DNA of 64,000 nt from Metridium senile (lineage: Eukaryota > Cnidaria > Anthozoa > Actiniaria > Metridiidae). Positions 30,875-50,800 of this stretch are shown piece after piece. Where the stretch lies: NCBI GenBank assembly GCA_949775045.1, contig OX459098.1:16497581-16561580 (forward strand), read 5' to 3'. The notes under the pieces were generated by a model, which saw only the letters and a program-made list of their open reading frames with translations, was not told where the DNA came from and searched no databases. The position numbers were made by a program, and so were the translations under genes. How positions within the stretch are numbered: the stretch's first letter is position 1; the number at the start of each line of letters is the position of its first letter.

Positions 30875-32638
<1,764 letters not shown>

Positions 32639-36900: not shown

Positions 36901-37192
36901 CAGTTCTTGCTAACGGTAAGCGAAGCTGCAGATCTTTGCTTCTAGTATTGTAATCAGTGGAATTGACTAGAAAACCGGAACTGCTCATTTAACAGGTATC
37001 TGCCCGGGCTAAACTATTTAGGCATTTGTATACCAGCATACAATTCTACTGAAAATTTCTGTCAAAAGTATTAGGAGAAAGTAAGATTTAATTCATTTTT
37101 TTTTTTTTTTTTTTTTTTTTTTTCCCTGCCTTCAAAGATTGCAGCAGCGCGCCTCTGTATAACCTGTCTAGGTACTCTTTCCTAGTGTTTCT

Positions 37193-38672
37193 TTTTTTTT
37201 TTTTTTTTTTTGAAATGTTTTTATTGAAAAACATGTAGAGTTTTATTTACATCAACTTAAGCTATTTACATCGACTTTGTATCAGCTTTATGTCAGCTTA
37301 GTATTCATTCACTTTTCTAATAATAATTGTCCCAATGCTTGACTATCCAGACATCGTGCTGTAACATTATTCTTAGAGTTTCAATTGCATAATGCAATTT
37401 CGAAAACATATAATCTTTAATCCATAGTTTTTTATGATTGTCACTCAAACATATAGAGGTATTATTCGCTGTGCATAATGCACATATTTCTATATAGTTC
37501 TTATAAATATTTGTCTTCGTGATACAACCACATACAGTTGCTCTGAGCATATCAGATTGTTTTAGTTGTTTCAAAAGGATCTCGACTGTTACGGTTTTAC
37601 CACCAATTTCTCGTAGTTGTTGACAAAAGGTCTCTATAGGATCATGTATCATACTAATTCCAGTTTTCATATTCGAGGTTGGTGTCATCCTAAACCTTTT
37701 CATGTCATCTTCAAACTTCTTTTTCTTCCTTTTTAAATCAGCAAAGTGTCTTTCAATTTCTTCTGTCTTTTTACGATTCAGTTCTGCTTCTGCTCCTTTT
37801 CGTTCTTTTTCTTCTTCTCTTTGCTGCTTCATCTCTTTCGAAGGCCATTCAATTGGTGGTGCTTTCGAGTTGCACGGTTGTGTTTTTTGTGAGGCATGGT
37901 CTTGTAGCATTTCTTTGTCTTTACTTTGCTCTTTGTCTTTACTTTGTTCTTTGTCTTTTATTTCCTCTTCATTATGGGATGGTTCATCCTTCTCATCAAC
38001 GTTTTCATCTGAATTTTCATCTTCACTTGATGTCTCATCGGTACTAGTTTCATCAGTCATCTCATCATCAGTTTTCTCATGTTCGGATTCATCAGGTTTT
38101 GCTTCATCTTCAATTGGACACGTGTCCATCATCGTCGTCATCACAACTGCTTGCGAAGTCGATGGTTCCATAGAAACAGTTTCAGTAGGAGCATCACGTG
38201 TCTTCAGTAGTGTGGGAGCGCATTGTTCGACCACATCCATCGGAACATCTTGTTGCACTATGGCACGGTGTTCAACAACTTTAGCAGAAACAATTCGCTG
38301 CGCATCCTTCACACTGGGTTTACGTTGTTCGACTACTTGCACCCTCAGGTCGCTTGTGAGATCATGGCGTGGCTGAGGCTTGCGCCTTCGCCGTTGCCTA
38401 CGACTCTTCTTTGGCGTTGCTTGGGTTTCTTTGCGTTTCGTAGTAAACTTGATAATTACTTTTGCCCCGTCGTTCCACTCAACAATAGTCCATCTTGGGT
38501 CAGCACAGTTGGAAAGGAACTCGGTGAGACGACTCCAAAGCTTCGGGTGAAGCTGAGCATCTGCTGGCATATCTGTAAAATAAAAAATCTTCTCTTCCTG
38601 TAGCACAGGGTTTATATCCTTGCCGAGTCGTCCAGCATCACTGCAGAGTACCACGCCAAACGCTTGTATCCA
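37193..38672 (-). mobile_element. Poly(A) retroelement inserted in the satellite, 5'-truncated
   Basis: It reads 5' to 3' on the minus strand and ends in about 19 A (T run at 37193-37211) preceded by an AATAAA-type signal. A 29-bp satellite sequence is duplicated exactly at its borders (37164-37192 and 38673-38701, ending CTAGTGTTTCT), the signature of target-primed insertion. The last 75 bp before the A run match the 3' end of the Tx1-type LINE at 42368-47877 at close to 90 percent by eye. The rest does not match. The ORF is open right to the 5' junction, so the copy is 5'-truncated. Confidence 0.85.
37317..38670 (-). CDS. Unrecognised basic/acidic coiled-coil protein of the retroelement (N-terminus missing)
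   Basis: About 450 codons are open from the 5' junction to TAA. There is no upstream ATG: the frame is already open at the insertion border and a GTG precedes the first internal Met. In order the protein shows a globular start (KLWSRLTEFLSNC ... WTIVEWNDGAKVIIKF), a strongly basic patch (RRQRRRRK) suited to nucleic-acid binding or nuclear import, an acidic Glu/Asp/Ser/Thr-rich middle, a KDKEQS repeat, a charged coiled coil (EMKQQREEEKERKGAEAEL) and a C-terminal segment with several Cys. No reverse transcriptase, endonuclease or zinc knuckle is visible. It may be an ORF1-type protein or a captured host coding sequence. I do not recognise the family. Confidence 0.5.
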
Positions 38673-40320: not shown

Positions 40321-42755
40321 CTGTCTAGGTACTCTTTCCTAGTGTTTCTACTGCATCCATGCATTTCAAACGCAAGAGCAATAATCAACAAGTGGAAGTA
40401 GAGTATTAAATACAAAGTGATACATGCATACGTGCCATCCGAAGTATAAAACAAGCACTCCCTACAACGTGTGGGTTGTCTTGGATGAAACTCGCTTGCA
40501 ATGCGATATCGAGTTGACCCTACTCCCCACTGGGAATAAGAACAATAAGATTAGCATAACAATAAACCTGCCCTGAAAGACTAGGATTTTTCAATTGTAT
40601 AAATCGAGTGACGCTTAGTTAGTCTACGTATAGGAATTATCATTTATAGCTTAGGGGCTGGTTCTCTCCTCCCTTCGGACGAGCTGGGTGTGGGGAACGG
40701 AGAGCGCGTGAGTTTTTTCTTTTTCTTTAATTTTTTCTTTTCTTTTTCTGATAAAAACAGCCTTTCTCATTCGAAACGTTTACAAACTAAAAAACTAGTT
40801 TCTGCATTTAATAACGAAAAGCATTATGGGTAATTATGCAAAGTTTCGACAGCACATGGACCAGATCCCAATTCTTGACATATTTTTTATAAGTGCTCAG
40901 TCACCCGCTCCAACCGGACAAAAATTGCACCGATTGCCATCTTTACAAGTCGAAACTCAATAAAATTGCCTTGGTTGGTTTTGGTATCTACTATTGGCAG
41001 GTAGGGAATTCCATGTTTTTGCCCCGTTATAGCAAAACGAAGATTCAAAATTTTGCGAAGATTGGTACTTAGCAGTTCTTGCTAACGGTAAGCGAAGCTG
41101 CAGATCTTTGCTTCTAGTATTGTAATCAGTGGAATTGACTAGAAAACCGGAACTGCTCATTTAACAGGTATCTGCCCGGGCTAGACTATTTAGGCATTTG
41201 TATACCAGCATACAATTCTACTGAAAATTTCTGTCAAAAGTATTAGGAGAAAGTAAGATTTAATTCATTTTTTTTTTTTTTTTTTTTTCCATGCCTTCAA
41301 AGATTGCAGCAGCGCGCCTCTGTATAACCTGTCTAGGTACTCTTTCCTAGTGTTTCTACTGCATCCATGCATTTCAAACGCAAGAGCAATAATCAACAAG
41401 TGGAAGTAGAGTATTAAATACAAAGTGATACATGCATACGTGCCATCCGAAGTATAAAACAAGCACTCCCTACAACGTGTGGGTTGTCTTGGATGAAACT
41501 CGCTTGCAATGCGATATCGAGTTGACCCTACTCCCCACTGGGAATAAGAACAATAAGATTAGCATAACAATAAACCTGCCCTGAAAGACTAGGATTTTTC
41601 AATTGTATAAATCGAGTGACGCTTAGTTAGTCTACGTATAGGAATTATCATTTATAGCTTAGGGGCTGGTTCTCTCCTCCCTTCGGACGAGCTGGGTGTG
41701 GGGAACGGAGAGCGCGTGAGTTTTTTCTTTTTCTTTAATTTTTTCTTTTCTTTTTCTGATAAAAACAGCCTTTCTCATTCGAAACGTTTACAAACTAAAA
41801 AACTCGTTTCTGCATTTAATAACGAAAAGCACTATGGGTAATTATGCAAATTTGCGACAGCACATGGACCAGATCCCAATTCTTTACATATTTTTTATAA
41901 GTGCTCAGTCACCAGCTCCAACCGGACGAAAATTGCACCGATTGCCATCTTTACAAGTCGAAACTCAATAAAATTGCCTTGGTTGGTTTTGGTATCTACT
42001 ATTGGCAGGTAGGGAATTCCATGTTTTTGCCCCGTTATAGCAAAACGAAGATTCAAAATTTTGCGAAGATTGGTACTTAGCAGTTCTTGCTAACGGTAAG
42101 CGAAGCTGCAGATCTTTGCTTCTAGTATTGTAATCAGTGGAATTGACTAGAAAACCGGAACTGCTCATTTAACAGGTATATGCCCGGGCTAGACTATTTA
42201 GGCATTTGTATACCAGCATACAATTCTACTGAAAATTTCTGTCAAAAGTATTAGGAGAAAGTAAGATTTAATTCATTTTGTCTTTTTTTTTTTTTTTTCC
42301 CTGCCTTCAAAGATTGCAGCAGCGCGCCTCTGTATAACCTGTCTAGGTACTCTTTCCTAGTGTTTCTTTTTTTTTTTTTTGAGATGTTTTTATTCAAAAA
42401 CATGTAGAATTTTATGTACATCAACTAAGCTATTTACATCAACTATATATCATCGTGGCTCTACATTTACATATTCAATAATTACTATATTTTCAATATT
42501 TACATGTGGTAAGTTAGTCACTATGTAATCTTATTTGTTTCTTAGTTTCATTTTAATCTATTATGTAATTCCTTGTAGATACTGTGACGTTCAGCACTTA
42601 TTCAACTGTGAACTTTCTATTGTAATCAATTATTATACTTTAGCTACGTGATCACTTATGTACATAATCACTTGTTGTACTAAGTATTTCTGGCCTTATT
42701 CTATTTCGTAGCTTATATATCCTGTGGTTTATTCTGATGACCGTTTAATTTACTT

Positions 42756-43146
42756 TGTATATCAGTGCGTGCTTTTATAGACAATCACTTACGCGTACTG
42801 TTTAAATTTTTTAAAGTCATCATTATAGCACTTCGCTAACAGCTGAATACACATATTCACTATTTTTAGCTACAAGCTAACGCACTGGAGTTTCATGCTA
42901 TTTTGATACTTCATTTCACGCTTTTGTATTATAGCAGTCTTGTGACCACTTACTTACTTTGTATATCAGTACGTTTTTTTTTATAGACAATCACTTACGC
43001 GTACTGTTTAGAGTTTTGAATCATCCTTATAGCACTTCGCTCCCAGCTGAATACCATGTATTCACTATTTTTAGCTACAAAGCTAACGCGCTAGAGTTTC
43101 ATGCTATTTTGATACTTCATTTCACACTTTTGTATTATAGCAGTCG
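42756..43146. repeat. Two-copy tandem repeat of about 190 bp in the LINE 3' UTR
   Basis: TTGTATATCAGT, TATAGACAATCACTTACGCG, TATAGCACTTCGCT, TTCACTATTTTTAGCTACAA and GTATTATAGCAGTC occur in the same order in 42756-42940 and 42958-43146. Confidence 0.85.
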
Positions 43147-43246
43147 CAAAAAGACACAAAAACATTAGATCAGCTAAAGCGTGCTAAAATATCACCCACC
43201 CCCCAAGTTTTGCAAAACATGACATCAGAGAGACGTACACGGTCAA

Positions 43247-46200
43247 TTAGAATTCTCTCTCTGAATCATGACGACACAGACGGATGACATCACGGTAGGA
43301 AACAATACTACGATCAAAAGTCGCACGGTTACGAAACACCCAAATAGCTTTCAGCATACATTCAATAACAAAAACAATTATCGTATCCTCCCTACGATTC
43401 CTTGCAAAGGAACAAAAGAAAACATTTTTAACGTCAATACAAAACTCTCTTGGCAAAATGCTTCTTAGTACAAACAACACCCAACCCCAAGCTTTTTTCA
43501 CTCTAGGACACTCTAAAAAACAATGCACACTCGTTTCTGGTTTACTACACACCGCACACCCTGTCTCTACAATATTATGTCCCCAGTCTTTCAACGTCAC
43601 TCTAACTTTCGTCACACCCTGAACTATTCTCCATCTCACTTCTCTCACAGTTGTAATCGCCATAGATTTTTTAAAGGCACCCCACACATTTCCCCAATTC
43701 ACACCCCTCACTCTATTACACCACATTCTCTCGCACCTTGGCTTAACATACACTTTACTAACCATAAGCAAATACAGCGCACGTACAGTCACATCAGCTT
43801 TTACATCAAAACATCTAAGATCCTCTAATACTTTCACATGATAATCTGGTATCACACCGGACGAAGGCAACAAATTCGTACTCAGACACAATAAATCTTT
43901 TACACATTTAGCAACACGATTACCCACCAAGTACCTCATATAGCAGAAATCCATGCACTGCTCACGGCGCAACATCGACAAAACGTTCACCACATGTAAG
44001 GCTCTAATACGCAAGCTGAAGTCCACCATGCCTAAACCCCCCTCCTTTATTGGCAACAAACATGTCTCTCGACGAATTAGCTCTACTTTACCCCCCCAGA
44101 CAAAGCCCCAAATCAGCTTGTTTACTGTCTTCACAATGTCACTAGGAACAGACAACACTCTCGCCCCATACTCTAATTTCGCTAGCCCCAAAACCTTCAC
44201 TATTAGAACCCTACCCCAGATTGATAATTTCCTACCCGACCACCTATTTAAACCCCCTTTCAGCTTATCTACTTTTCCCACCCAATTCTCATCCCTTACT
44301 TCATCCCCAAACCAAATCCCCAGAATTTTCATTTTGACCACCCACTTAATCCCACAAGGTTTATCCACTCTACTCTTGAAACTCCCAACCCACATTGCTT
44401 CCGATTTACCCCTATTCAGTCTTGCCCCAGTACCCCTCCCAAAAAAGTCCACCATATCCAAGACCCTCCCCACCGACGAAGCATCTCTCAGCAGCAGAGT
44501 TGCATCATCCGCGTACTGTACTATTTTCGATTCCCTCCCACCCGACCCAGGTATAAGAAATCCCCTCACCCCCTCAGCCGCTCGGATGTTGCATGCTAAG
44601 ACCTCTGCCACCAACACATAGAGCATTGGTGACAGAGGGCAACCCTGTCTTATCCCTTTCCCCAAAACAATATTCCCCGTTAACGCACCATTACAGATCA
44701 CTCTTGCACTCACCCCCTCGTACAACACTCTCATCCACCCCCGAAAGGAATCCCCAAATCCAAAACACTCTAGCACTCTATTCAAAAAACCCCTGTCCAC
44801 CCGATCAAACGCTTTCTCTTGATCGAGTGAAAGTACTACTCCCCCCTGCCCTAATCTCTCAATGTCACACAGCATATCACGCACAAAATTTAAATTTTCA
44901 AAAATGGACCTCCCCGGTATCCCACACGTTTGGTCGCTCTCTGTCACTTCTCCCATCACACCACTCAACCTCCCCCCCAGAGCTTTCGCAACAATCTTAT
45001 AGTCAACATTAAGAAGGGAGATAGGCCGCCAGTTACGTAGGTCAGACCTATCACCCTTCTTAAATAGTAACCTCACTACACTCCTCACCATACCCTCCGG
45101 AAAAAACCCTTTGTCATAACTCTTATTTGCAACTTTAACTAAAAAAGGTAGTAACAAATCTTCAAACTGCTTATAAAACTCCAAGGACAACCCATCCTCC
45201 CCCGGTGTTTTCCCCATACTCATCCCTTTCACTGCCTTTTCCATTTCTCCCACACTTATCAGACCCTCACACTTTTCACACGACTCACTCTCTAAACCCC
45301 TTTCTATCTTTGTAAGCAATTCATTCTGTACACTCCTCTCCGTGCTTTCCTCTTTATACAGTTCCTTATAAAATCGCTCAATAATCCCAAGTTTCCCTCT
45401 CTGCTCTCCATCTTCTGCACCGTTCTCGTCTATCAAAACATCAATCTCATTACTTGTCCCATGCTCTTTAATAAGGCTGAAAAAATACCTGGTAGGTTTC
45501 TCTCCCTCCTTAACCTTAACCCTGCTTCTTATTTTCACCCCTTCAAAATCACTTTCCACAATTTGTTTCAGACGACATTCTAACCTCTCGATTTGCGTAT
45601 TGACATCCTGTCCGTTGCTAAGCATTCTTTTTAATGTTATAATCTCCTTTGTTATTACGTTTTTTTTAAGTCTTTTCATTCTCGCTCTGTTCTTACTAAT
45701 CTTTATAATACGTTTTTTCATACGATTCTTTAAGTCACTCCACTCCTCCCATTCACTCCCCACACTTAACTCTAGTTCAATTTCTAACCACTCCCTCATC
45801 TCTCTAACAAAGAATTGATCATTTAATAAGTCACAGTTGAATTTCCATAACCCACCCCCCTTGCCTGTCCTCCCCCTTGCAACGTAAATTTAACCCCATC
45901 GTGGTCGGATACACCCAACGGCTCAACAAAAAGAGATGAGAATTTGCCCATCAACCCCCGCGAAAAGTATACCCTATCTAACCTTGATCCCACCCCCTGA
46001 CCGAACCACGTAAAATGTGACGCACCCCCATAGAGATGTATCCACCCATCAACTAGGTCAAGGTCAGACAAAAGATACCCTAACTCCTTCGAGCCCTCCC
46101 TATTTGCACCGGACACACACGACGAATCAACATTACGGGACACACAATTAAAATCGCCAGCCATGATTAACAGCGTATTTGGAAAAACATATTGATACAA

Positions 46201-46569
46201 TTTACCAAAAAATACTTTACGTTCACGTAAATCAACTGGAGCGTACACACAAAGAAAGGTATAGCGCGCCCCTCCCCATTCAACCAAAACACTCATTACC
46301 CTCCCCTCTGTGTCACGCAACTCATCAATCACTCTTATGTTCTTTCGTTTTTTGAAAACAATACCCACCCCCGCACGCCTCGCCCCTCCAAATCTCCAAA
46401 ACCCAAACCCGCCCCATTCATTTTGAAAGCGTTCAGCCTTCACCATACAATCAACATGCGATTCTTGTACGAACAAAACATCCCACCGAGACAATGCAGA
46501 CGCAACAATACCACATTTAAGGGGCGAACCAATCCCACGGACATTAATGCTAATACACTTTAAGGACAT
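43247..46569 (-). pseudogene. LINE ORF2: endonuclease plus reverse transcriptase, one frameshift
   Basis: The first part (46569 down to about 45850) is an APE-type endonuclease: SINVRGI, QESHVD, GDFNC and SDHDGV motifs. The frame then ends at TAA (45823-45825), while the next frame reads WKFNCDLLNDQFFVREMREW across the break and continues for 850 codons to 43247. One frameshift near 45845-45860, beside a run of C (CCCACCCCCC), explains this. The second part has reverse-transcriptase motifs GKTPGEDGLSLEFY, NWRPISLLNVDYK, SLDQEKAFDRVD, GIRQGCPLSP and VQYADDATLLL (catalytic YADD near 44505-44516), then a C-terminal Cys-His cluster (CAVCSKPETSVHCFLEC). Length would be about 1100 residues if joined, normal for this group. 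The sense strand is G-rich and C-poor. A real lesion or a sequencing error are both possible. Confidence 0.9.
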
Positions 46570-46701
46570 GAATTTGCATAAGGACTTTTACAACCACACA
46601 ACAAAGGGTACGATACAAGGAACATGAAAGAACTATACAATACATACACAATACAACGTAAAACAGCGCAAAAATTAGCATATTTACCTAGCATGGACAA
46701 T

Positions 46702-47835
46702 CTAACGTTTTGGAATCTTTTTTTCCGCTACTGCTTTAGGATCAGTATTCTCGTCGTTTTTCCTTTTAGAGCTGACCGTTGTCCATGGCATTTCAGTGTC
46801 ATCGTTTAGAAAGCCTGCAATAGAGAATGAAACACCCCCTGCCCCAAACAACCGCTCAGTACCCTCGTTTAAAACCTCAACAGTTTCATGTCCTATATCA
46901 CCCTGAGCTATAGAGTTTGAGTCTTCTTTTTCTGCTTTATCTTGTTCTGTTTCTTGTTGTTCTGTTTCTTGTTGTTCTGTTTCTTGTTGTTCTGTTTCTT
47001 GTTGTTCTGTTTCTTGTTGTTCTGTTTCTTGTTGTTCTGTTTCTTGTTGTTCTGTTTCTTGTTGTTCTGGTTCTTCTTGTGTGGATATTTCTTCTTCATT
47101 TGCCTCCAGTCGCGTTGGCGAAGCTGGGCTTGCAATTTCTTGGTCCTTGTCGTGTGCGTTCGCCAAACCCGCGTAGTAGTCATCTTCTTGACTTTGGCAT
47201 CTTTGCTCCGAATGCCCAACCTCACTGCAGTATTGGCACACCAAATTCTCGTCGCATTCATTTGCCATATGTCCGATTCCTTTACAGTTATAACACTTTA
47301 CATATGGACAGTTTTTCAGTAAATGGTATGTCGAAGCACAGTTACGGCACGTTTTAGTTTGACCATAGTGGTACACTCGACATTCAAATCCCTCTATCTT
47401 CACGAAGGATGGGATGGGCCTACGTATCGCCATTGATACGGTTCTTATTCCATTGTCGACAGTAGGGTAACCGATAATTTTGTCATTTCTGACTTTATAC
47501 ACGTGGCCAAATTCGCTCATGTACGCTTTTAGCTCGTTATTGTGTACTTCGTATGGTACTTGATACACTTTGACAAACACCATTCCCCCATCAGCCGGAG
47601 TGATGATTACCGGTCCCCCATTAACAATTATCGTCTGCAAATTCAGAACATCTTCAACTATCATATGCGTCTTGAAGGTAATTAAAGTCGTTTTGTCCCC
47701 AGCATCTTGCACGCATACAATGTTACCGCTCGGTATTTCCTCCAAGGCTTCAAAAGCGTCAAGAATCTCACTCGGAGTGGCATAGCATTGGGCCACACGA
47801 ACAGTATTCGGTCTTTTACGTCTCAAGTTCACCAT
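46702..47835 (-). CDS. LINE ORF1: RNA-binding protein with three CCHC zinc knuckles
   Basis: The start is taken as the ATG at 47835, since the frame's upstream start codon is GTG. The protein has about 377 residues. VFVKVYQVPYEVHNNELKAY resembles the start of an RRM-like fold. Three cysteine clusters follow: CRNCASTYHLLKNC (divergent, lacking the Gly), CYNCKGIGHMANEC and CQYCSEVGHSEQRC, the latter two classical CX2CX4HX4C knuckles. A QQETE pentapeptide is then repeated eight times (15-bp DNA repeat at about 46949-47070), followed by a short C-terminus. Such ORF1 proteins bind the element's RNA as a chaperone. The frame is intact, suggesting recent activity. Confidence 0.85.
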   Translation of the reverse strand: MVNLRRKRPNTVRVAQCYATPSEILDAFEALEEIPSGNIVCVQDAGDKTTLITFKTHMIVEDVLNLQTIIVNGGPVIITPADGGMVFVKVYQVPYEVHNNELKAYMSEFGHVYKVRNDKIIGYPTVDNGIRTVSMAIRRPIPSFVKIEGFECRVYHYGQTKTCRNCASTYHLLKNCPYVKCYNCKGIGHMANECDENLVCQYCSEVGHSEQRCQSQEDDYYAGLANAHDKDQEIASPASPTRLEANEEEISTQEEPEQQETEQQETEQQETEQQETEQQETEQQETEQQETEQQETEQDKAEKEDSNSIAQGDIGHETVEVLNEGTERLFGAGGVSFSIAGFLNDDTEMPWTTVSSKRKNDENTDPKAVAEKKIPKR

Positions 47836-47862
47836 TTCGATCACAATCTGTTCAAATCCAAA

Positions 47863-47880
47863 GATAAGAACAGATACTAC
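47863..47880 (-). other. 18-nt match to U2 snRNA at the LINE 5' end
   Basis: On the minus strand the element's first bases read GTAGTATCTGTTCTTATC, identical to the conserved U2 snRNA region that holds the GUAGUA branch-site recognition sequence (compared from memory of vertebrate U2). The first three bases overlap the satellite target duplication. The match stops where the element's own sequence begins (TTTGGATTTG). Confidence 0.7.
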
Positions 47881-50800
47881 TCTTTCCTAGTGTTTCTACT
47901 GCATCCATGTATTTCAAACGCAAGAGCAATAATCAATAAGTGGAAGTATCACTGAGTATTAAATACAAAGTGATTAGTCTTACGTGCCATCCGAAGCATA
48001 AAACAAGCACCCCCTACAACGTGTGGGTTGTCTTGGATGAAACTCGCTTGCAATGCGATATCACATTGAATGCGCGAGTTGACCCTTCTCCCCACTGGGA
48101 ATAAGAACAATAAGATTAGCATAACAATAAACCTGCCCTGAAAGACTAGGAGTTTTCAATTGTATAAATCGAGTGACGCTTAGTTAGTCTACGTATAGGA
48201 ATTACCATTTATAGCTTAGGGGCTGGTTCTCTCCTCCCTTCGGACGAGCTGGGTGTGGGGAACGGAGAGCGCGTGAGTTTTTTCTTTTTTTTTTAATTTT
48301 TTCTTTTCTTTTTCTGATAAAAACAGCCCTTCTCATTTGAAACGTTTACAAACTAAAAAACTAGTTTCTGCATTTAATAACGAAAAGCATTATGGGTAAT
48401 TATGCAAAGTTTCGACAGCACATGGACCAGATCCCAATTCTTGACATATTTTTTTACAAGTGCTCAGTCACCCGCTCCAACCGGACAAAAATTGCACCGA
48501 TTGCCATCTTTACAAGTCGAAACTCAATAAAATTGCCTTGGTTGGTTTTGGTATCTACTATTGGCAGGTAGGGAATTCCATGTTTTTGCCCCGTTGTAGC
48601 GAAACGAAGATTCAAAATTTTGCAAAAGATTGGTACTTAGCAGTTCTTGCTAACGGTAAGCGAAGCTGCAGATCTTTGCTTCTAGTATTGTAATCAGTGG
48701 AATTGACTAGAAAACCGGAACTGCTCATTTAACAGGTATATGCCCGGGCTAGACTATTTAGGCATTTAATTTGTATACCAGCATACAATTAATTGTACGG
48801 AAAATTTCTGTCAAAAGGATTAGGAGAAAGTAAGATTTAATTCATTTTTTCATTTTTTTTTTCCTGCCTTCAATGATTGCAGAAGCGCGCCTCTGTAACC
48901 TGTATAGGTACTCTTTCCTAGTGTTTATACTGCATCCATGCATTTCAAACGCAAGAACAATAATCAACAAGTGGAAGTATCATTGAGTATTAAATACAAA
49001 GTGATTAGTCTTACGTGCCATCCGAAGCATAAAACAAGCACCCCCTACAACGTGTGGGTTGTCTTGGATGAAACTCGCTTGCAATGCGATATCACATTGA
49101 ATGCGCGAGTTGACCCTTCTCCCCACTGGGAATAAGAACAATAAGATTAGCATAACAATAAACCTGCCCTGAAAGACTAGGAGTTTTCAATTGTATAAAT
49201 CGAGTGACGCTTAGTTAGTCTACGTATAGGAATTACCATTTATAGCTTAGGGGCTGGTTCTCTCCTCCCTTCGGACGAGCTGGGTGTGGGGAACGGAGAG
49301 CGCGTGAGTTTTTTCTTTTTTCTTTTCTTTTTCTGATAAAAACAGCCTTTCTCATTCGAAACGTTTACAAACTAAAAAACTAGTTTCTGCATTTAATAAC
49401 GAAAAGCATTATGGGTAATTATGCAAAGTTTCGACAGCACATGGACCAGATCCCAATTCTTGACATATTTTTTATAAGTGCTCAGTCACTCGCTCCAACC
49501 GGACAAAAATTGCACCGATTGCCATCTTTACAAGTCGAAACTCAATAAAATTGCCTTGGTTGGTTTTGGTATCTACTATTGGCAGGTAGGGAATTCCATG
49601 TTTTTGCCCCGTTGTAGCGAAACGAAGATTCAAAATTGTGCGAAGATTGGTACTTAGCAGTTCTTGCTAACGGTAAGCGAAGCTGCAGATCTTTGCTTCT
49701 AGTATTGTAATCAGTGGAATTGACTAGAAAACCGGAACTGCTCATTTAACAGGTATATGCCCGGGCTAGACTATTTAGGCATTTAATTTGTATACCAGCA
49801 TACAATTGTACGGAAAATATCTGTCAAAAGGATTAGGAGAAAGTAAGATTTAATTCATTTTTTTTTTCCTGCCTTCAATGATTGCAGAAGCGCGCCTCTG
49901 TAACCTGTATAGGTACTCTTTCCTAGTGTTTATACTGCATCCATGCATTTCAAACGCAAGAACAATAATCAACAAGTGGAAGTATCATTGAGTATTAAAT
50001 ACAAAGTGATTAGTCTTACGTGCCATCCGAAGCATAAAACAAGCACCCCCTACAACGTGTGGGTTGTCTTGGATGAAACTCGCTTGCAATGCGATATCAC
50101 ATTGAATGCGCGAGTTGACCCTTCTCCCCACTGGGAATAAGAACAATAAGATTAGCATAACAATAAACCTGCCCTGAAAGACTAGGATTTTTCAATTGTA
50201 TAAATCGAGTGACGCTTAGTTAGTCTACGTATAGGAATTACCATTTATAGCTTAGGGGCTGGTTCTCTCCTCCCTTCGGACGAGCTGGGTGTGGGGAACG
50301 GAGAGCGCGTGAGTTTTTTCTTTTTTCTTTTTCTTTTTTCTTTTCTTTTTCTGATAAAAACAGCCTTTCTCATTCGAAACGTTTACAAACTAAAAAACTA
50401 GTTTCTGCATTTAATAACGAAAAGCATTATGGGTAATTATGCAAAGTTTCGACAGCACATGGACCAGATCCCAATTCTTGACATATTTTTTATAAGTGCT
50501 CAGTCACCCGCTCCAACCGGACAAAAATTGCACCGATTGCCATCTTTACAAGTCGAAACTCAATAAAATTGCCTTGGTTGGTTTTGGTATCTACTATTGG
50601 CAGGTAGGGAATTCCATGTTTTTGCCCCGTTGTAGCGAAACGAAGATTCAAAATTGTGCGAAGATTGGTACTTAGCAGTTCTTGCTAACGGTAAGCGAAG
50701 CTGCAGATCTTTGCTTCTAGTATTGTAATCAGTGGAATTGACTAGAAAACCGGAACTGCTCATTTAACAGGTATATGCCCGGGCTAGACTATTTAGGCAT

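What the first reader, a model, noticed from the sequence alone, without database searches (positions are those of the whole stretch)
47835..47897. Tx1-type LINE begins with an 18-nt piece of U2 snRNA
At the 5' junction the minus strand reads satellite duplication, then GTAGTATCTGTTCTTATC, then LINE sequence. The 18 nt equal the invariant branch-site recognition region of U2 snRNA. Established knowledge: the Keno family of the Tx1 clade inserts specifically into U2 snRNA genes. Two explanations follow. This LINE may be a Keno-like element whose parent sits in a U2 gene and was transcribed with U2 5' flank. Or the reverse transcriptase may have jumped onto U2 RNA during 5' end attachment. The first would mean a U2-specific LINE has landed in a satellite.
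Basis: partly seen in the sequence, partly recalled or inferred. Interest (0 to 1): 0.87.

Follow-up and report, generated by a model that had tools for sequence, protein, structure and literature searches.

The report
Satellite LINE bearing U2 target relic
In a sea anemone genome, a family of jumping genes that inserts at one exact spot of a satellite repeat begins with a short piece of the U2 snRNA gene, most likely left from an ancestor that lived inside U2 genes, so the element carries a record of its former target.

Summary
The minus strand at 47880-47863 equals nt 33-50 of the host's own U2 gene (15 nt U2 only; GTA shared with the satellite). Host: Metridium senile, chromosome 4. The head is not a one-off: all 10 copies found of this LINE with both ends (family A, four chromosomes) carry it, all at one base of a ~1 kb satellite. 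Sister family B (6 of 6 heads seen) carries U2 nt 37-50 at another site of that satellite. Close relatives in the same genome live in the U2 locus: family C (ORF2 74% identical) ends poly(A)|U2 nt 39, and element X lies between two copies of U2 nt 39-52. A distant LINE, D, carries U2 nt 1-44 into the satellite. Best reading: A and B descend from a U2-resident LINE whose RNA kept U2 leader; the target changed to the satellite and the leader stayed as a fixed head. Satellite leader may be carried likewise: in 7 of 9 testable A copies the 5' flank differs from the copy's own array, though three rest on one base. No A or B copy was found in U2. Template jumping, chance or one stray landing fit less well. 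New variant of a known kind: a target switch with the old target still written in the element.

The parts
47863..47880 (-). U2 head: host U2 snRNA gene nt 33-50 (nt 33-35 GTA shared with the satellite)
47878..47896 (-). 5' copy of the 19-bp target duplication GAAACACTAGGAAAGAGTA (satellite)
42381..47862 (-). LINE body, family A, this copy
46702..47844 (-). ORF1, 380 aa, zinc knuckle; holds a 15-bp tandem repeat at 46942-47080
45823..46569 (-). ORF2, first part: AP-type endonuclease; frame broken between this and the next part in this copy
   Evidence: copies open over the whole ORF2
43247..45799 (-). ORF2, second part: reverse transcriptase and zf-RVT
42389..42394 (-). AATAAA polyadenylation signal
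42367..42380 (-). poly(A) tail, 14 A
42348..42366 (-). 3' copy of the 19-bp target duplication
47846..47875 (-). 5' hairpin ATCTGTTC...GAACAGAT, 14-nt loop; one arm is U2 head (U2 nt 38-45), the other LINE body; same arms in family B
37192..38672 (-). element E: non-autonomous-looking passenger, 445-aa ORF, last ~90 bp like the family A 3' end, same first-nick site, 28-bp target duplication

Best explanation
The window holds one copy of a LINE family (A) that inserts at one base of a ~1 kb satellite. Its first 15-18 nt are a relic of the U2 gene. An ancestor sat in U2 genes with the first nick at U2 nt 38/39 (shown for relatives C and X) and the second near nt 50 (inferred; X shows 52). Its RNA included U2 leader upstream of the insertion (inferred for A and B; supported by D copies with U2 nt 1-44 and 23-44). 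One such RNA was reverse transcribed into the satellite. The cDNA end joined at a GTA microhomology, the rest of the U2 leader was lost, and nt 36-50 stayed (inferred). The endonuclease then kept the satellite as its target (shown: 10 of 10 A copies; B at a second site). The RNA still carries upstream target sequence, now about 30-45 nt of satellite in front of the U2 relic, which anneals to the nicked satellite and gives the exact 5' junction (inferred from mosaic flanks; the least certain step).
For: Exact 18-nt identity to host U2. Head in 10 of 10 A copies and 6 of 6 B copies whose 5' end was seen, all ending at U2 nt 50. A copies lie on four chromosomes in several array types; nine are 98.1-99.6% alike, L017 about 93%, while flanking satellite between copies ranges from about 97% alike to far less. 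Family C: 5 of 5 genome hits match from U2 nt 1, 3' end poly(A)|TCTGTTCTTATCAG. Element X: U2 nt 39-52 on both sides, ORF1 40% identical to A and B. ORF2 of A, B and C one clade, 100/100. D: U2 nt 1-44 in the satellite, nt 23-44 elsewhere. Mosaic 5' flanks in A and in 2 B copies.
Against: No A or B copy was found in a U2 gene (17 matches, 16 with the head, all 16 in satellite; the 17th lacks the head). The ancestral junction at nt 50 is therefore not seen; X shows 52, D about 37-52, C 26-28. Some ORF2 places (C3:5.70 Mb, C1:41.83 Mb) were not examined, and the U2 array has runs of N. Of the 7 mosaic A flanks three rest on one base; in L009 and L015 the 3' copy also differs from the single empty site in hand; L014 and B copies L022 and L023 match their own array. 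Some copies may not be independent (L009/L013 share an array, L022/L023 look like duplicates). The ORF2 tree leaves A, B and C unresolved and lacks X; the direction U2 to satellite rests on ORF1 identities (A-B 51%, A/B-X 40%, C to the others 23-29%) and on U2 being the published Keno target.
Confidence: 0.84

Rival explanations
1. Template jumping: in an A/B ancestor the reverse transcriptase ran off the LINE RNA and copied part of a free U2 snRNA; the fragment was then inherited.
For: U2 RNA is abundant, and snRNA/LINE chimaeras are known in mammals (recalled, not looked up). No A or B copy is in U2.
Against: A jump onto U2 RNA should start at or near its 3' end; the heads of A, B and most D copies end at nt 43-52, where U2-resident X and D have their 5' junctions, and one D head begins at nt 1.
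Confidence: 0.08
2. Chance or convergence: the 5' end of A/B is a conserved hairpin that happens to resemble U2.
For: The head forms one arm of a perfect 8-bp hairpin kept in A and B, so selection on a hairpin could hold the sequence.
Against: Exact 15-18 nt identity in the right orientation at the element's very end, covering the published Keno/Utopia target, in families whose close relatives live in U2.
Confidence: 0.03
3. One stray landing of a U2-specific LINE in a satellite, later copied with the satellite by recombination.
For: All A copies are in satellite arrays; L009 and L013 share one array type, and some other flanks are about 97% alike.
Against: Several copies lie in array types much less alike than the LINEs; in L010, L012, L013, L014 and L016 left and right flank are of one type (98-99.8%); poly(A) tails differ.
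Confidence: 0.04
4. About the carry-over step only (does not exclude the main reading): the 5' flank mosaics come from gene conversion between arrays, or mutation, not from satellite sequence carried on the RNA.
For: Satellite arrays exchange sequence; three of the seven A cases rest on one base.
Against: The foreign stretch is short and on the 5' side; in L012 and L016 the 3' copy is own-array right after the poly(A).
Confidence: 0.3

Closest known systems
Keno (Tx1 clade, U2 snRNA gene-specific LINE)
   Same: AP-type endonuclease LINE; relatives C and X join U2 at nt 39 (TCTGTTCTTATCAG), the published Keno 3' flank (passages of PMC4640811 and PMC6136364).
   Different: The window's family is in a satellite, in none of the 10 copies in U2; U2 is only a 15-18 nt relic at its 5' end.
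Utopia / YURE / NeSL
   Same: Same U2 site; the paper argues that NeSL arose from Utopia by a target change, and that YURE prefers a U2-derived satellite (PMC4640811, passages).
   Different: They carry a restriction-like endonuclease; the satellite here shows no U2 match of its own beyond the junction (12-mers, window).
R1 of Drosophila melanogaster
   Same: Full-length transcripts are inferred to carry 6-27 nt of upstream 28S, which anneal to the target (PMC2718515, passages).
   Different: R1 keeps its 28S target; here the carried piece of the old target became a fixed part of a family with a new target.

Membership tests
Keno | inserted in U2 snRNA genes with 3' flank from nt 39 | tested here: not met
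   family A: 0 of 10 copies in U2, all in satellite. Met by relatives C and X
Keno | AP-type endonuclease | tested here: met
   PF03372, E 1.5e-16
Tx1 clade | RT phylogeny inside Tx1 | tested here: inconclusive
   nearest solved structures are L1 ORF2p (E 2e-58) ahead of R2 (1e-16); no named Tx1 reference was in hand
Tx1 clade | ORF1 with zinc knuckles, ORF2 with endonuclease, RT and zinc motif (recalled) | tested here: met
   zf-CCHC, Exo_endo_phos, RVT_1, zf-RVT
Target-specific LINE | independent insertions at one base of a repeat | tested here: met
   10 of 10 A copies at one satellite base, in several array types on four chromosomes; 6 of 6 B copies share one 5' junction, though L022/L023 may be duplicates
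Utopia | restriction-like endonuclease | tested here: not met
   AP-type endonuclease instead; no restriction-like domain reported by Pfam

The most novel reading that the evidence does not exclude
These LINEs keep a layered record of their targets at the 5' end. Each RNA carries tens of bases of the host sequence upstream of its insertion, used to anneal to the next target. When the target changes, the old layer is sealed in. Family A reads satellite, then U2, then LINE body, so the order of target switches can be read from the ends of living copies, and the carried leader may itself help hold or change target choice.
Probability: 0.55. Interest if true: 0.8.

Novelty: new variant of a known kind. 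Interest (0 to 1): 0.68.

Why it matters
How site-specific retrotransposons change targets is mostly inferred from trees. Here one genome holds U2-resident relatives, satellite-specific families, and a piece of the old target fixed at the latter's 5' end. That makes a target switch directly testable, and points to co-transcribed target leader as part of both precise 5' joining and target change.

Tried and rejected
Rejected: template jump, chance, a single stray landing (see rivals). Rfam at gathering score over the whole window gave 0 matches; at E up to 10 over 42300-48100 it gave 3 weak ones (snR68, mir-2001, mir-204), no U2 or ribozyme. A blast of X's 5' region against A, B, C, D, U2 and satellite DNA showed nothing significant in the 30 rows printed (best E 0.025), but the listing was cut by position, so it is no proof of absence; kinship of X shows at protein level. 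The genome-wide count of GTATCTGTTCTTATC did not complete. The 3' ends of D copies were not reached. The C4:14.138 Mb copy is B-like at its 3' end and in satellite, its 5' end was not seen. Other ORF2 places were left unexamined. Genome searches warn that counts of repeats are lower bounds. The Keno literature search gave 4 papers; Kojima 2015 on snRNA-headed SINEs is not held, and Kojima and Fujiwara 2004 was not read.

Full report
What is there. On the minus strand at 47880-47863 the window reads GTAGTATCTGTTCTTATC, between satellite sequence and the start of a LINE. The LINE runs to 42381. It has ORF1 with a zinc knuckle, an AP-type endonuclease, a reverse transcriptase and a zf-RVT motif, an AATAAA signal and 14 A. 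The 19-bp sequence GAAACACTAGGAAAGAGTA stands on both sides, so the copy entered by target-primed reverse transcription. ORF2 of this copy is broken in frame; two other A copies (L012, L016) are open over the whole of it.

Host. Contig C1 of the held genome is 66,427,095 bases, exactly the longest scaffold of Metridium senile, and C2 to C4 and C15 agree with Table 2 of that paper (passages of PMC11362738; loci table). C5 and C9 differ by about 0.01-0.02 Mb, and total and contig count (389.3 Mb, 169) differ from the paper's 390.9 Mb and 250, so the held copy is not identical to the published set. The window is C4:16,497,581-16,561,580. A GPCR gene in the window is closest, among named hits, to sea anemones.

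The head belongs to the family. A 120-base search of the whole genome gave 17 matches. Ten are family A (the window and L009-L017), all with the 18 nt. Six (L019-L024) are family B, with U2 nt 37-50. One (L018) is a fragment without the head, outside the satellite. All ten A copies sit at the same satellite base, on C1-C4. Nine are 98.1-99.6% alike, L017 about 93%; some have internal gaps or inserts. The 1 kb of satellite beside them ranges between copies from about 97% alike to far less. L009 and L013, 44 kb apart, share one array type, so the number of independent insertions is below ten. In five copies left and right flank are of one type (L010, L013, L014 above 99%, L012 98.5%, L016 97.7%); L015 gives 95% and the window 93%; the rest could not be compared. 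Several separate insertions at one site are the best reading. B joins the satellite at a different base, GCTTGTTTTA, in 6 of 6 copies; L022 and L023 are near-identical neighbours and may be duplicates. In four B copies where I could judge it by eye (L019, L021, L022, L024) the satellite resumes some 70-80 bp downstream.

U2 and its residents. The genome has a U2 array on C1 at 1.813-1.872 Mb, unit 1413 bp: 20 full-scoring genes, one disrupted, and a further match on C3. The host U2 has the 18 nt at nt 33-50. In and near the array lie LINEs with ORF2 74-78% identical to the window's, and one broken copy at 61-71%. Family C: 5 of 5 genome hits match from U2 nt 1, and in the four junctions read the element starts after nt 26-28. 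Its 3' end in the array is poly(A) followed by U2 nt 39, the published Keno and Utopia 3' flank (passages of PMC4640811 and PMC6136364). C-type tails followed by U2 from nt 39 also stand in L048 (5 nt of U2) and L063. Element X has U2 nt 39-52 on both sides (one mismatch on the left, two extra bases before it on the right), so a 14-bp U2 duplication. Over the X stretch of ORF1, A-B is 51%, A-X and B-X 40-41%, C to the others 23-29%. The ORF2 tree joins A, B and C with full support but not their order; X was not in it. A distant LINE, D (33% over 705 residues), has six copies at its 5' end: one on C3 in the satellite with U2 nt 1-44 at its head, from the first base of U2; five on C1 at 1.66-1.74 Mb, near the U2 array. 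Of these, L060 has nt 23-44 and L058 nt 23-52 behind similar non-U2 sequence (perhaps not independent), L059 about nt 9-37 with mismatches, and L057 and L056 follow C and X with 5 and 14 nt of U2 between.

Carry-over today. In family A the satellite just before the head often does not match the copy's own array. Of nine copies with an empty site from the same array in hand (L017 has none), seven differ from all of those sites within 32 nt (L009-L013, L015, L016), the window copy matches the units on one side only, and L014 matches. Edits: one in L010, L011 and L013, two in L009, three in L012 and L015, seven in L016 (an indel and one base). L012's 5' flank is identical to L010's, and L010 and L012 are among the most alike LINE pairs (99.6%); in L012 and L016 the 3' copy of the duplication matches the own array. 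Against this, in L009 and L015 the 3' copy also differs (two and one) from the single empty site in hand (L012 read by eye). L012 still has its own array's marker further up, which puts the foreign stretch at about 28-45 nt. In B, L021 shows two foreign bases within 30 nt and L019 one; L022 and L023 match their own array; L020 and L024 could not be judged. Gene conversion is possible but does not predict a foreign 5' side beside a native 3' side.

How it most likely works. Shown: the head, its identity with host U2, satellite targeting at one base, U2-resident relatives using the nick at 38/39, and a U2-headed D copy in the satellite. Inferred: A and B descend from a U2 resident joined after nt 50; its RNA kept U2 leader; on landing in the satellite the cDNA joined at GTA; the endonuclease then kept the satellite as its target; and the RNA now carries satellite leader that anneals to the target. 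For R1 in Drosophila, carried target leader has been proposed from junction data (PMC2718515 passages).

What is new. Target-specific LINEs, Keno in U2, and target changes in the Utopia/NeSL group are in print. A family with a new target that still wears a fixed piece of the old one, with U2-resident relatives in the same genome, did not show in the listings of my searches. That is a limited library, of which I read passages only, and the 2004 and 2015 Kojima papers most likely to bear on it were not read.

Noticed in passing
window 38672-37192 (and a cut copy 40320-39616): Element E: 445-aa ORF without Pfam match, last ~90 bp like family A's 3' end (91% to L012), inserted at the same first-nick site with a 28-bp duplication; looks like a passenger of family A.
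   Followed up: partly
window 33281-64000: The ~1026-bp satellite seems, read by eye, to contain remains of the C-terminal coding part of another LINE; one spacing is 4641 bp and holds a full endonuclease-RT ORF at 59841-56434.
   Followed up: no
window 30875-32637: (TTGC) microsatellite, about 441 copies, 100% matches.
   Followed up: no
L046, C3:3909263: LINE D copy in the same satellite with U2 nt 1-44 at its head, from the first base of U2; its 3' end was not reached.
   Followed up: partly
L048, L056, L063 (C1:1.716-1.742 Mb): LINEs stacked in the same U2 site, C then D and C then X then D, separated only by 5-14 nt of U2.
   Followed up: partly
L019-L024: Family B has a constant 5' junction but variable 3' junctions, with an apparent target deletion of ~70-80 bp in the four copies judged by eye.
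   Followed up: partly
window 47846-47875: The U2 head pairs perfectly (8 bp) with LINE body 14 nt on, in A and B; why the body holds a complement of U2 nt 38-45 is unexplained.
   Followed up: no
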